Positions 3,892-55,130 of a stretch of 64,000 nucleotides of DNA are shown here, in pieces. Under the pieces are notes generated by a model, which saw nothing but the letters and a program-made list of their open reading frames with translations, was not told the DNA's origin and made no database searches. Within the stretch, counting starts at the first letter, position 1. Each line of letters starts with the position of its first letter. A program made the position numbers and the translations under genes. The stretch spans positions 1 to 64,000 of the forward strand of contig NZ_JAVBXD010000016.1 of assembly GCF_030756675.1 (NCBI RefSeq). Reading direction: 5' to 3'. This DNA comes from Bacillus multifaciens. GTDB lineage: Bacteria > Bacillota > Bacilli > Bacillales > Bacillaceae_G.

Positions 3892-4066
3892 TCTCTTATC
3901 AAGAGAGGTGGAGGGACTGTGCCCTGTGAAACCCGGCAACCGTCAACTTATGTTGAAATGGTGCCAATTCCTGCAAAGCGAATGCTTTGAGAGATGAGAG
4001 GAAAGGATAATAGTAATTTATGTATATAAACCTTTCTGCTCATTTTAAAGCAGAAAGGTTTTTTGT
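3892..4066 (+). promoter_or_regulatory. SAM-I (S-box) riboswitch with terminator
   Basis: The aptamer runs from CTCTTATCAAGAGAGGTGGAGGGAC through the AAACCCGGCAACC core to the closing GAGATGAGAGG arm near 4001, which is the S-box pattern. A terminator follows: AACCTTTCTGCT at 4029-4040 pairs with AGCAGAAAGGTT at 4049-4060, then T-rich sequence. When S-adenosylmethionine is bound, the downstream methionine importer should be turned off by termination. Unusually, a 140-bp dispersed repeat lies between this terminator and metN. Confidence 0.96.
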
Positions 4067-23758: not shown

Positions 23759-24259
23759 TTACATATATATAGAAATACAATCACCAACTGTAAGTTTGGC
23801 ATTTGGTTTAATCTGTTGTCCGTTTAAGTGAATAGATCCTTGTTTAATTTTTTCTGTAATTACTGTACGGCTCCATTCTGAAATATAGGTTGCGAGTGCT
23901 TTGTCGATGCGAAAGAATCCATGCACGGATTCTAATAGGATAGTTAGTTCTATTGTTCCTGTATTTTTATAGGACATAATTGAAATATTGTTTAGCGATT
24001 CTTGGTGTTCTTCTTGAAACGTGTCGACTGTTTCAACATGTTCAGAATATGTTTTATAAATGTGTAACTTCTTATTCCATGTATGTCCTTTTTCGCATTT
24101 ATAAATCGCAAAACGATAAATGTTTTTACCGTTTGCGTTATGTCTGCGAATGTGTGTATCCGTAAAAATAGCTGTGTGTCCGCAATTTTTACAATGTTTT
24201 TCTACAGTTGTTTCTAATTCTGTTTTATATAAATTCCAAGAAAGTTGTACGTTCTGCAT
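23759..24259 (-). CDS. Protein with N-terminal zinc-ribbon-like and C-terminal S4-like RNA-binding domain
   Basis: 166 aa. Residues 20-60 hold CKNCGH and CEKGH, a possible zinc ribbon. The last 50 residues (RIDKALATYISEWSRTVITEKIKQGSIHLNGQQIKPNAKLTVGD...) have the pattern of an S4 domain as in pseudouridine synthases, but no catalytic domain follows. I infer an RNA- or ribosome-binding role. GAGGTGAAGG precedes ATG. Its leader, up to 24546, contains a structured RNA with a terminator, so expression may be attenuated. Confidence 0.65.
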   Translation of the reverse strand: MQNVQLSWNLYKTELETTVEKHCKNCGHTAIFTDTHIRRHNANGKNIYRFAIYKCEKGHTWNKKLHIYKTYSEHVETVDTFQEEHQESLNNISIMSYKNTGTIELTILLESVHGFFRIDKALATYISEWSRTVITEKIKQGSIHLNGQQIKPNAKLTVGDCISIYM

Positions 24260-24330
24260 TTTCCTTCACCTCGTATTTAGATAAAGGAACGTGAGACATC
24301 TATTTGGATGTCTTGCGGTATGAAATATAG

Positions 24331-24374
24331 AAAAAAGAGAAAAATAAAAGAAGGTTCCCCTATGAGGAACCTTC
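24331..24374 (-). terminator. Terminator of the structured RNA, upstream of the S4 gene
   Basis: Minus strand: GAAGGTTCC-TCATAG-GGGAACCTTC followed by TTTTATTTTTC. It sits 70-90 bp before the S4-domain gene start, so it either ends a small RNA or attenuates that gene. Confidence 0.85.
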
Positions 24375-24547
24375 GTAACAATCATACTGCAGATGTGCTA
24401 CGTTCCTTTGCAATGGGAATTGGGCAGACTACTCCCTTGCAAAAAGCGTTGTGCTTTTTTGAGAGTAATGCTATCCAGTTGCTGATCCATTACAAAGTAA
24501 ATGTTGGCATACGTAGTGTAACATCCTTTCTATCCAAATAGATTTGT
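24340..24547 (-). ncRNA. Candidate structured small RNA or regulatory leader, about 205 nt
   Basis: On the minus strand a promoter is followed by a rod-like fold. Nested pairings, given by plus-strand position, are CTACGT (24398-24403) with ACGTAG (24511-24516), CTTTGCAATGG (24406-24416) with CCATTACAAAG (24487-24497), CTACTCCC (24429-24436) with GAGAGTAA (24461-24468), and GCAAAAAGC (24439-24447) with GCTTTTTTG (24453-24461). An intrinsic terminator follows. No ORF of note. Size and shape recall 6S RNA or a riboswitch-type leader, but I recognise no conserved core. It could be a free small RNA or the leader of the S4-domain gene. Confidence 0.6.
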
Positions 24548-24551
24548 CGTT

Positions 24552-24579
24552 AGTATATCACATTAAACTGAAAATTCAA
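24552..24579 (-). promoter_or_regulatory. Promoter of the structured RNA
   Basis: Minus strand: TTGAAT at 24579-24574 and TATACT at 24557-24552, 16-bp spacer, with an extended -10 TG two bases before TATACT. Predicted start near 24546. Confidence 0.6.
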
Positions 24580-25883: not shown

Positions 25884-26031
25884 TGTGACATTCCTCCAAT
25901 TTCGAAAATCATACAAATATAACTATAACAAAGAACGAGAAAAAGGTGAATTCGAAAAATTGTCGATTTTTTTTGAATAAAAGGGTACAATTGGTGATGA
26001 AAATGCTTTAATTACCAGGTAGGTGACATAT

Positions 26032-26472
26032 ATGTACTTTGTAGATCGGAAAAAAATTGAACAAATGTTACAGTGTTTAGAGAAAGTTGTTGCAGCATTT
26101 CAAACAAAGCAAGAATATAAGGGAGCGCTTGATGAATATGCGTTAGAGCGTATGGCGCATCTCATGATCGATTGTATTTTAGATGTAGGAAATGCCATGA
26201 TTGATGGATTTATTATGCGCGATCCAGGCAGCTATGAAGATATTATTGATATTTTAGTGGATGAAAAAGTTGTTACAAATGAAGAAGGAGAACGTTTAAA
26301 AGAAGTTGTTCGTCTTCGTAAAATGATTGTACAAGAGTATGTAAATATGAATCACGCAGACGTGTATAATACAGTGCAAAAGCATATTGATATGGTGAAA
26401 CAATATCCTGCTAATATTCGTCGTTATTTGGAACAAGAACTTGGACCGGTATCTGCGTTTGCAGGAGATTAG
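26032..26472 (+). CDS. yutE: HepT-like HEPN domain protein YutE (DUF86)
   Basis: 146 aa all-helical protein of the DUF86/HepT group, whose active members are RNase toxins with an R-x4-H motif. Here the corresponding stretch reads R96-KMIV-Q101-EY, so the catalytic histidine is replaced by glutamine. No partner nucleotidyltransferase antitoxin is next to it. I therefore infer a non-toxic, housekeeping role. GGTAGGTGAC places the start at ATG 26032 rather than GTG 26023. A hairpin follows the stop. Confidence 0.82.
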   Translation: MYFVDRKKIEQMLQCLEKVVAAFQTKQEYKGALDEYALERMAHLMIDCILDVGNAMIDGFIMRDPGSYEDIIDILVDEKVVTNEEGERLKEVVRLRKMIVQEYVNMNHADVYNTVQKHIDMVKQYPANIRRYLEQELGPVSAFAGD

Positions 26473-53177: not shown

Positions 53178-54905
53178 ATGGAATGGAAAAAAGAATATGA
53201 ACGCTGGATTTCCTTTACAGATTTAGATGCAGAGTTAAAGCAGCAACTAGAAGAAATGCAAAGTGATGAGAAGAAAATTGAAGATAGTTTTTATAAAAAT
53301 TTAGAGTTTGGTACAGGCGGTATGCGCGGAGAATTAGGTGCCGGCACAAATCGTTTGAATGTGTATACTGTTCGTAAAGCAACAGAAGGTTTAGCTCATT
53401 TTATTGAAAAGCAAGGCGAAGAAGCAAAAGTACGCGGCGTTGTTGTTGCATACGATTCTCGTCATAAATCTCCAGAGTTTGCAATGGAGGTGGCAGCAAC
53501 ATTAGGTGCTCACGGTATTAAAACATACGTATTTGAAAGTCTGCGCCCAACACCAGAATTGTCCTTTGCGGTGCGTTATTTACATACGTACAGTGGTATC
53601 GTTCTTACAGCAAGCCATAACCCTCCGGAATATAATGGTTACAAAGTATACGGAGATGATGGGGGACAATTGCCTCCGAAAGAAGCGGATGAGTTAATTC
53701 AATATGTAAATCATGTAAGTGATGAATTGACAGTAGAGGTTGCCGATGTAGAGCAATTGAAACAAAACGGTCTTCTACAGATTATCGGTCAAGAAGTTGA
53801 CGATGCATATTTAGAACAATTAAAAACAGTTATTTTGAATAAAGAGCTTGTGAAGGGAATTGGACAAGATTTAAAAATCGTCTTCTCACCTTTACATGGA
53901 ACATCTAACATTCCGGCTCGCCGCGGATTAGAGGCAGTTGGATTTAAAAATGTAACCGTTGTAAAAGAACAAGAACAGCCAGATCCAGACTTTTCAACAG
54001 TAAAATCACCAAATCCAGAAGAACATGCTGCGTTTGAATTGGCAATTCGATACGGTGAAGAAATTGATGCAGATGTATTAATTGCAACAGATCCAGATGC
54101 GGATCGTCTTGGCGTTGCAGTTCGCAATCATGATGGTGAGTATCAAGTGTTAACAGGAAACCAAACAGGTGCTTTAATGCTAGAATACTTATTATCACAA
54201 AAGAAAGAACAAGGTATTTTACCAACAAACGGTGTTGTATTAAAAACAATCGTTACATCAGAGTTAGGACGTACAATCGCAAAATCTTACGGACTTGATA
54301 CAATTGATACGTTAACTGGCTTTAAATTTATCGGTGAAAAGATTAAGCAATATGAAGCGAGCGGAGAATATGAGTTCCAGTTCGGTTATGAAGAAAGTTA
54401 TGGTTATTTAATTCGTCCGTTCTGCCGTGATAAAGATGCGGTACAATCTGTATTATTTGCATGTGAAGTTGCTGCATATTATAAAGCACAAGGTAAAACA
54501 TTGTATGATGGTTTACTTGAAGTATTTGAAAAGTACGGATTCTTCCGTGAAGGTCTTGTTTCCTTAACGTTAAAAGGAAAAGACGGAGCAGAACAAATTC
54601 AAACTATGATGACGTCGTTCCGTGAAAATAGACCGACAGAAGTTGCGGGCTTAGAAGTAACGATTGCTGAAGATTATAAAGCAAGCGTTAGAACAAAAGT
54701 AGAAGAAAATGCGACAGAAGAAATCAAATTACCAAAATCAAATGTATTAAAGTATTATTTGGCAGATGGATCTTGGTTCTGCTTACGCCCATCGGGAACA
54801 GAGCCGAAAATCAAGTTTTACTTCGGTGTGCAAGGTGATTCCTTACAACATAGTGAAGAGAAACTTGAAGCGATTAAAAAAGCTATTATGAATCGAGTAC
54901 AATAA
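53178..54905 (+). CDS. pgcA: Alpha-phosphoglucomutase (phosphohexomutase family)
   Basis: 575 aa alpha-D-phosphohexomutase that interconverts glucose-6-phosphate and glucose-1-phosphate. The phosphoserine is S146 in [11 protein letters not shown]; the metal loop is DPDADRLGV; the sugar-binding GFKFIGEK and EESYGY motifs and the C-terminal phosphate-binding [12 protein letters not shown] are present. It supplies glucose-1-phosphate to galU, the next gene. GAGGAG sets ATG 53178. Confidence 0.96.
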
Positions 54906-54930
54906 AAAAGGGAGAAATCCCTTTTTTTTT
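54904..54930 (+). terminator. Terminator of pgcA
   Basis: AAAAAGGGA-GAAA-TCCCTTTTTTTT. Confidence 0.88.
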
Positions 54931-55130
54931 ATTGCATAAAGATTTAATAAATAAGTAAAAGGTACATGTATTGAGAATACTTTGTCGTAGAAAAATAATG
55001 GAAAAAGGACTGCGCATAACAAACTGTTTCATGGGAAATGGCTTCTCAAAATAAAGGATTTCTTTCACAGAATCAGTTGACATGGCGCTCGTTTATTATG
55101 TTATCAATCTATGACAAGTTTGAGGAAACC
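54931..55130. other. Intergenic region between pgcA and galU, distal part
   Basis: AT-rich, no ORF with a ribosome binding site. A second possible promoter, TTGACA at 55077-55082 with TGTTAT at 55099-55104, lies here. Nothing else recognised. Confidence 0.4.

What the first reader, a model, noticed from the sequence alone, without database searches (positions are those of the whole stretch)
24331..24579. Unassigned structured RNA of about 210 nt with its own promoter and terminator
The minus strand shows TTGAAT-16-TATACT with an extended -10, then a rod-like set of four nested stems (including an 11-bp stem CTTTGTAATGG/CCATTGCAAAG with a G-U pair and an 8-bp stem with wobble pairs), then an intrinsic terminator with a T-run. 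Such compensating pairing is unlikely by chance. The terminator is 75 bp upstream of an S4-domain protein gene. It may be a 6S-like small RNA, or a ligand- or protein-controlled attenuator. I recognise no conserved core of a known family.
Basis: partly seen in the sequence, partly recalled or inferred. Interest (0 to 1): 0.75.

Follow-up and report, generated by a model that had tools for sequence, protein, structure and literature searches.

The report
Ribosome-sensing leader of an S4-protein gene
The RNA is the start of a gene's own message: it carries a six-codon mini-gene inside a switchable fold, so that a ribosome held up there would probably turn on a gene for a predicted ribosome-binding protein, and look-alike switches sit in front of several enzyme genes of kinds that include drug-modifying enzymes.

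Summary
The structure is real and conserved, but it is a cis-acting leader, not a 6S-like sRNA; no Rfam family matches. Covariance models find it directly upstream of the same S4-domain/zinc-ribbon gene in 43 of 47 loci (window included) and in 23 of 23 sampled genomes with that full-length protein. Beyond the terminator, conserved segments pair back: A2 with the 5' end, B2 with either B1 (3' arm of the stem and beyond) or the S4 gene's ribosome-binding site, giving OFF and ON folds. Partners pair better within than between genomes. The plan matches the B. subtilis vmlR leader. Related leaders precede GNAT, ASCH-like, APH-like and SDR genes, two per genome in ten genomes, which argues against simple S4 autoregulation. 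Most likely: a ribosome-stalling attenuator that induces a ribosome-associated S4 protein. Inducer, expression and protein function are untested, and static folding alone does not fully open the ribosome-binding site.

The parts
24552..24579 (-). Promoter-like site TTGAAT-16-TATACT with extended -10
   Evidence: in relatives an A+T-rich -10-like stretch just before segment A1 was seen by eye only; the match alone is not above chance
24532..24543 (-). A1: 5' end of the transcript (AUCUAUUUGGAU), pairs with A2
   Evidence: MFE of full leader; partner-swap own -13.3 vs swapped -9.6 kcal/mol, 0 of 20000 permutations; weak in L040, L077, L119
24524..24531 (-). SD1: AGAAAGGA, ribosome-binding site of the uORF
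   Evidence: exact match of 6-8 nt to the SD consensus in the first-listed leader of 29 of 31 distinct uORFs
24511..24525 (-). P1 5' arm, between SD1 and uORF start; pairs with the 3' half of B1
   Evidence: MFE; partner-swap own -7.9 vs -5.5, 0 of 20000
24490..24510 (-). uORF ATG CCA ACA TTT ACT TTG TAA = MPTFTL*
   Evidence: 31 distinct uORFs in 71 leaders: Pro2 31/31, stop TAA 31/31, start ATG 28/TTG 3, last codon Leu 28/31
24487..24497 (-). P2 5' arm (holds the uORF's Leu and stop codons)
24417..24486 (-). P3 inner domain with conserved internal loop GGAUAG (24476-24471) / AGUCUGCC (24430-24423)
   Evidence: alignments; missing or changed in L041, L043, L119
24406..24416 (-). P2 3' arm
24391..24409 (-). 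B1 (AAAGGAACGUAGCACAUCU): pairs with P1/P2 5' arms (OFF) or with B2 (ON)
24383..24392 (-). C1, pairs with C2 around the terminator
   Evidence: partner-swap P = 0.012, weaker
24340..24374 (-). Intrinsic terminator hairpin and T-run
   Evidence: of the 23 leaders listed, 20 have a hairpin with a run of 4 or more T, L101 has three T, and in L016 and L034 the stretch taken showed no good terminator
24312..24322 (-). C2
24298..24309 (-). A2 (AUCCAAAUAGAU), pairs with A1
24283..24300 (-). B2: pairs with B1 (ON) or with the RBS of the S4 gene (OFF)
   Evidence: B1:B2 own -17.9 vs swapped -13.3; B2:SD2 own -13.0 vs -11.1; both 0 of 20000
24261..24289 (-). SD2-sequestering hairpin UUCCUUUAUC...GGUGAAGGAA (SD2 GAGGUGA 24272-24266)
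   Evidence: MFE of full leader, 11 bp
23759..24259 (-). Gene for the 166-aa protein: zinc-ribbon-like N-terminus (C23, C26, C55, H59) and C-terminal S4 domain
   Evidence: Pfam S4 E 1.6e-4, 21.8 bits, just under the cut-off of 22.8; alignment of 34 relatives; S4 fold; zinc binding is inferred

Best explanation
It is the 5' leader of the S4-protein gene, working as a ribosome-mediated attenuator. A ribosome loads at SD1 and translates a six-codon uORF (MPTFTL*). When it passes freely, the SD1-uAUG linker and the uORF end re-pair with B1 (P1 + P2), the terminator ends most transcripts, and in read-through transcripts B2 pairs with SD2 and blocks translation of the S4 gene: OFF. When the ribosome is held on the uORF, the 5' arms of P1/P2 are covered, B1 is freed and captures B2, and SD2 is exposed: ON. 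The product is predicted to bind the ribosome (S4 fold as in Hsp15/RqcP/YlmH), so the switch would induce a factor that acts on disturbed ribosomes. Shown by comparison: leader position, uORF codon constraint, P1, P2, A1:A2, B1:B2 and B2:SD2. Inferred: that it is transcribed and translated, that stalling is the signal, how the terminator is overcome, and what the protein does.
For: Position: R2 hits directly upstream of the S4 gene in the window and 42 of 46 loci (model partly built from them, see full report). In 398 sampled genomes of the class, 26 carry the RNA by R1, and all 23 with the full-length protein (E <= 1.6e-60) are among them. Neighbouring genes differ. uORF: 31 distinct forms; Pro2 in 31/31 with all four third bases (CCA 26, CCG 3, CCC 1, CCT 1), TAA 31/31, Leu 28/31 by TTG or CTG, 5 or 6 codons in 30/31, start AUG 28 or UUG 3. 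Pairing: partner-swap tests on 23 leaders. Adding B1:B2 to the fold is unfavourable in the free RNA in 20 of 23 and favourable with the uORF occupied in 19 of 23 (no pseudoknot penalty). Same plan in B. subtilis vmlR: uORF in SL-1, terminator SL-3, SD-sequestering SL-4, shown to act by lincomycin stalling (PMC9226507, passages). Related leaders before other genes, two per genome in ten genomes.
Against: No expression, ribosome-profiling or induction data. In a nested-only partition function a ribosome footprint on the uORF does not open SD2 in most of 22 leaders, window included. With B1:B2 imposed, the window stays slightly unfavourable (+1.6 kcal/mol), and the seven SD2 bases are all unpaired in only 3 of 23 ON folds (L001, L003, L037). 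So the switch would need co-transcriptional order or help. Pairing of B1 with the terminator's 5' arm (a direct antiterminator) is not supported (P = 0.077). Marininema (L040/L075) has the stop out of frame (MPIHTVMG*). Partner-swap tests do not correct for phylogeny. Nearly all canonical leaders are tied to one gene, which also fits autoregulation. By record title no B. cereus-group genome is among the 46 loci, so conservation inside that group was not tested.
Confidence: 0.72

Rival explanations
1. The S4/zinc protein binds the conserved P3 internal loop of its own leader and shuts off its expression (autogenous control, as with ribosomal proteins).
For: Near one-to-one link of canonical leader and gene; conserved GGAUAG/AGUCUGCC loop; L041 and L043, whose S4 gene is frameshifted, have lost or changed that inner part (L043 is a metagenome bin); the protein carries an S4 RNA-binding domain.
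Against: The same core (uORF, P2, often the inner loop) precedes an ASCH-like gene (L077), GNAT genes (L137, L151, L185), APH-like and SDR genes. L119 has an open S4 gene without the inner motif. Codon-level constraint on the uORF is not needed for protein binding.
Confidence: 0.13
2. A small-molecule riboswitch whose aptamer is the P3 domain; the uORF is incidental.
For: Conserved internal loop, terminator and alternative pairings.
Against: No Rfam class matches; the inner domain is absent or different in L119 and L043; the downstream genes share no evident pathway; start, Pro, Leu and stop codons are conserved as codons.
Confidence: 0.07
3. The uORF senses slow decoding of particular codons (charged tRNA-Pro, -Trp or -Leu, or lack of EF-P), that is, amino-acid or elongation-factor supply rather than inhibitors.
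For: Second codon is Pro in all 31 canonical uORFs and mostly Trp or Cys in the APH/SDR relatives; the last is mostly Leu.
Against: Only one such codon per uORF, and the downstream genes are not evidently biosynthetic. The residue at codon 2 varies between leader groups with the same architecture.
Confidence: 0.12
4. An independent trans-acting sRNA (6S-like or other) that happens to lie upstream of the S4 gene.
For: Own promoter-like site and terminator, so a ~200-nt product is expected.
Against: No Rfam match; the strongest swap-test signal links sequences before the terminator with sequences after it.
Confidence: 0.04

Closest known systems
Bacillus subtilis vmlR leader (PMC9226507; passages read)
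   Same: Short uORF in the first stem, intrinsic terminator, hairpin sequestering the SD of the main gene, alternative conformation when a ribosome stalls; main product acts on the ribosome.
   Different: vmlR uORF is three codons (MIN) and the main gene is an ABC-F ATPase; here MP(x)xxL*, an A1:A2 closing helix, a C1:C2 arm and a conserved inner loop, and the gene is an S4/zinc-ribbon protein. Induction not tested here.
erm-type translational attenuators (recalled, no call)
   Same: Four-segment logic 1:2 + 3:4 versus 2:3, with the ribosome covering segment 1.
   Different: Here a terminator lies between segments 2 and 3, the uORF is much shorter, and the gene is not an rRNA methylase.
E. coli toiL uORF of topAI-yjhQ (PMC12121999; abstract and outline)
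   Same: uORF that relieves occlusion of the downstream RBS when ribosomes stall; responds to several antibiotic classes.
   Different: Rho-dependent instead of intrinsic termination, Gram-negative, other gene.
S4-domain ribosome factors RqcP, YlmH, Hsp15 (PMC11317155, passages)
   Different: The window protein has an N-terminal zinc-ribbon-like part with an almost invariant RHNANGKN stretch; its function is unknown.

Membership tests
Ribosome-mediated uORF attenuator (vmlR/erm type) | Short uORF with its own SD, conserved as codons | tested here: met
   31 distinct uORFs, Pro2 31/31, TAA 31/31, start ATG/TTG; comparative only, no ribosome data
Ribosome-mediated uORF attenuator (vmlR/erm type) | uORF overlaps one arm of mutually exclusive structures | tested here: met
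   P1/P2 versus B1:B2 versus B2:SD2, each better within than between genomes
Ribosome-mediated uORF attenuator (vmlR/erm type) | Terminator and/or SD sequestration controlled by the switch | tested here: inconclusive
   Both elements present, but the antiterminator pairing is not supported (P 0.077); nested folds do not open SD2, and with B1:B2 imposed SD2 is fully unpaired in 3 of 23
Ribosome-mediated uORF attenuator (vmlR/erm type) | Induction by ribosome stalling | not testable with these tools
   needs a reporter or toeprinting
6S RNA and all other Rfam families | Match to the family's covariance model at its curated cut-off | tested here: not met
   (only a SAM riboswitch elsewhere in the window); best of 4 matches E 0.14, far below its cut-off
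Autogenous r-protein-type leader | Leader bound by the protein it encodes | not testable with these tools
   indirect evidence against: other genes behind the same kind of leader
Pfam DUF1062 (window S4 protein) | Pfam gathering score | tested here: not met
   window protein E 0.2, 12.8 bits against 23; two proteins behind related leaders (L074, L076) do match (E 1.3e-36, 1.7e-38)
Pfam S4 domain (window S4 protein) | Pfam gathering score, S4 fold | tested here: inconclusive
   21.8 bits against 22.8 for the window protein; 33 of 34 family members hit at E <= 1, best 1.8e-10; fold rows are S4 proteins but Foldseek's best E is 6.4e-3

The most novel reading that the evidence does not exclude
The leader belongs to an undescribed superfamily of vmlR-like attenuators in Bacilli: a 5-6-codon uORF (M-P/W/C-x-x-L-stop) ending inside a conserved stem, a common A1:A2 closing helix, an AUAG/AGU-UG-C inner loop and a B1:B2 switch. 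Several copies per genome form a regulon that answers one translation-blocking signal, and its targets (S4/zinc protein, DUF1062 protein, ASCH-like protein, GNAT, APH-like kinase, SDR) are an unrecognised set of ribosome-protection and compound-inactivation genes, with residue 2 of the uORF tuning the response.
Probability: 0.45. Interest if true: 0.85.

Novelty: new variant of a known kind. Interest (0 to 1): 0.7.

Why it matters
It gives a leader with a predicted mode of action to a family of S4/zinc-ribbon proteins without an assigned role and predicts that they act on disturbed ribosomes. If the related leaders answer the same signal, one RNA model would list inducible resistance or rescue genes in many Bacilli genomes that homology alone cannot name, and the uORF would show which inhibitors they answer to.

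Tried and rejected
Tried without result: plasmid and phage collections with the leader (no match) and plasmids with the protein (none); a viral-contig pattern scan gave 4 matches that I judge to be chance. glpX, the SAV0927-like gene and the YhcN-like gene of the window were not found in the 46 loci of about 8.5 kb (tblastn, E 1e-4). R3 hit at window 54826-54941 (E 0.055) inspected and rejected. A direct antiterminator B1:terminator was dropped for lack of support. Nested-only switching is not supported. The phylum-wide R2 search hit only 2 of 398 genomes, one of them the query genome itself; small family and order searches hit 2 of 5 each (E <= 0.05, some of these weak and not leaders that I could confirm). 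DUF1062 occurs in 2 of 299 class genomes and 0 of 14 controls. Literature: no paper holds 'S4 domain', 'leader peptide', 'Bacillus cereus' and 'attenuation' together; DUF1062 is named once each in 2 papers (listing only); two genome-wide ncRNA surveys do not name Brevibacillus, Lysinibacillus, B. cereus, B. anthracis or Paenibacillus in their main texts (term counts and passages); the rows listed show no description of this leader in titles or abstract beginnings. Supplements were not searched. The S4 protein's N-terminal part gave weak Foldseek rows to large-subunit ribosomal proteins that I recall as eL42 (prob 0.14-0.57); too weak to use.

Full report
WHAT WAS CHECKED. The promoter-like site, the 11-bp stem with one U-G pair, the nested stems and the terminator are at the stated places on the minus strand. 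The 207-nt RNA folds far better than shuffles (z -4.8), the 293-nt leader better still (z -5.9). Rfam gives nothing here at curated cut-offs and only four far-below-cut-off matches to eukaryotic families with E up to 10.

IT IS A LEADER. A scan of named genomes with the downstream 166-aa protein gave 46 loci. A covariance model (R2; its alignment holds the window, 17 of these 46 loci and 5 others, so part of the hits are by construction) matches directly upstream of the S4 gene in the window and 42 of the 46 loci (E <= 1.4e-7). The four without are L042 (Oceanirhabdus) and L044-L046, where only the S4-domain part of the protein matches. The protein profile finds 23 of these 398 with the full-length protein (E <= 1.6e-60), and all 23 are among the 26. 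The other three precede two DUF1062 genes (L074, L076) and one gene cut by a contig end whose product is ASCH-like: no Pfam match, but 40% identity to annotated ASCH proteins over 76% of its 94 residues (L077). Two weaker protein homologues (E 1.4e-38, 8.3e-37) have the leader too: weak by R1 (E 0.003-0.007), clear by R2, which was built with them (L101, L102). A fragmentary homologue (L103) and one DUF1062 gene (L120) show no hit. In a phylum-wide draw only 2 of 398 hit, one being the query genome and one new (L119). Neighbouring genes differ in the ten loci that I laid out, and the window's neighbours were not found in the 46 loci, so leader and gene keep together in changing surroundings.

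THE UPSTREAM ORF. The window and the 42 loci all read AUGCC...UAAUG behind a purine-rich SD-like stretch. Over 71 leaders there are 31 distinct uORFs. Codon 2 is Pro in 31/31, using all four third bases. The stop is UAA in 31/31. The codon before it is Leu in 28/31 (UUG or CUG). The start is AUG in 28 and UUG in 3 (L074, L076, L119; these also have an SD-like stretch upstream). Length is 5 or 6 codons in 30/31. The exception is Marininema (MPIHTVMG*, L040 and L075), where the usual UAA is out of frame. Other departures are MPSSM* (L101) and MPETA* (L043, decayed gene). The stop codon sits in the 5' arm of stem P2.

PAIRING. P2 plus inner helix, counted together: alignment, 84.8% of cells paired against 41.7-53.6% when slid, 8 pairs with double changes, 2 of 500 shuffles as many; broader alignment, 82.7%, 11 pairs, 0 of 500. 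P2 alone is 95.9% and 92.5% paired; the inner helix is weaker (65.9% and 67.1%), partly because linkers differ in length. In the widest alignment, with the APH/SDR relatives, P2 is 81.2% paired with 4 double-change pairs, 14 of 500 shuffles as many, so support there is thinner. After the terminator lie A2, complementary to the transcript's 5' end (A1), and B2, complementary both to B1 (3' arm of P2 and beyond) and to the RBS of the S4 gene. In 23 leaders the partners of one genome pair better than partners swapped between genomes, reached in 0 of 20000 permutations: B1:B2 -17.9 vs -13.3 kcal/mol, A1:A2 -13.3 vs -9.6, B2:SD2 -13.0 vs -11.1, P2 -15.4 vs -13.3, and P1 -7.9 vs -5.5. C1:C2 is weaker (P 0.012) and a B1:terminator antiterminator is not supported (P 0.077). 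These tests do not correct for phylogeny. A1:A2 is weak in L040, L077 and L119.

HOW IT WOULD WORK. The MFE of the whole leader is the OFF fold: A1:A2 closes a junction of the P1-P2-P3 rod and the terminator arm, and B2 hides SD2 in an 11-bp hairpin. B1 cannot pair with P1/P2 and B2 at once. Adding B1:B2 to the fold costs energy in the free RNA in 20 of 23 leaders and gains it with the uORF occupied in 19 of 23 (without a pseudoknot penalty, which would lower that number; the window stays slightly unfavourable, +1.6). In these ON folds the seven SD2 bases are all unpaired in only 3 of 23, and in a nested-only model the RBS does not open in most of 22 leaders. So static energetics point in the right direction but do not prove the switch; co-transcriptional order would matter.

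WIDER FAMILY. R2 over 239 genomes of one order hits 29. R3 (built from some of these loci) over 120 genomes of an order hits 20, and over 30 chosen genomes, picked mostly because they had hits, 28; the draws overlap. Result: 13 S4 (all MP), 1 DUF1062 (UUG start, then Pro), 3 GNAT (MP), 11 APH-like (10 MW, one AUG-UAG), 15 SDR (10 MW, 5 MC), 1 beta-lactamase-like hydrolase (MV), 3 unassigned. Pfam was run on one protein each of GNAT, APH-like, SDR and beta-lactamase-like; the other labels rest on shared motifs and, for 15 of the 17 later loci's products, on BLAST to these. Leu is coded there by UUG, CUG or CUU. Departures: L147, L166, L167 and L162 run one or more codons past Leu, L149 ends in UAG, L172 is MCG*, L173 MCPLM*. 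Ten genomes hold two leaders before different genes: S4 + GNAT (G895, G948), S4 + APH (G839), S4 + SDR (G003), GNAT + SDR (G879), APH + SDR (G859, G796, G830, G788, G876). Second places in G046, G883 and G896 were not looked at. In 21 such leaders (19 APH/SDR, 2 GNAT) the A1:tail and B1:tail pairings beat swapped partners (P 0.011 and 0.0065). Of 20 sources with these and canonical leaders none matches Rfam there; the one hit is a Bacillaceae-1 sRNA elsewhere in L077.

DECAY. Where the S4 gene is frameshifted (L041, and L043, a metagenome bin) the inner domain is lost or changed; L103 has gene pieces and no RNA hit; L136 keeps a leader without the gene in the stretch read, and in L138 both the DUF1062 gene and the uORF frame look broken.

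COMPARISON. The layout is that of the B. subtilis vmlR leader, where lincomycin stalling on a three-codon uORF relieves both a terminator and an SD hairpin (PMC9226507, passages), and resembles toiL in E. coli (PMC12121999, abstract). The kind is therefore known. The family, its targets and its extra closing helix were not found described by the searches named.

VERDICT. Real and conserved: a uORF-containing leader of an S4/zinc-ribbon protein gene, most likely induced by ribosome stalling, and one of a wider group of such leaders. Signal, expression and protein function remain untested.

Noticed in passing
window 3893-4000 (+): SAM riboswitch, 91.9 bits, the only Rfam match of the window at curated cut-off.
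   Followed up: no
window 26023-26472 (+): HepT-like RNase toxin-type protein (NCBIfam NF047751, 61.8 bits against 60); partner antitoxin not looked for.
   Followed up: no
   Followed up: partly
L139, L146, L149, L150, L161, L163, L164, L168, L172-L176, L183, L191: SDR oxidoreductase genes behind MW/MC leaders (NCBIfam PRK12859-type for the one tested, L139); why an SDR should be under a uORF attenuator is unexplained.
   Followed up: partly
L185 and L137/L151: Two GNAT-like types behind MP leaders; L137 tested by Pfam (E 5.4e-9), L185 looks like a RimJ/RimL-type enzyme by eye only.
   Followed up: partly
L142: Beta-lactamase-fold serine hydrolase (Pfam E 2.7e-65) behind a short leader with uORF MVTL*; to my eye the poorest architectural match.
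   Followed up: no
L077 641-705 (+): Bacillaceae-1 sRNA, 38.7 bits, in the same contig as the ASCH-like-gene leader.
   Followed up: no
L136, L138: Leader without an S4 gene in the stretch read (L136), and DUF1062 gene apparently frameshifted with the uORF frame lost (L138): leaders decaying with their genes.
   Followed up: partly
L036 4742-5620 (-): A gene that looks by eye like an RlmA-type 23S rRNA methylase lies next to the S4 gene.
   Followed up: no
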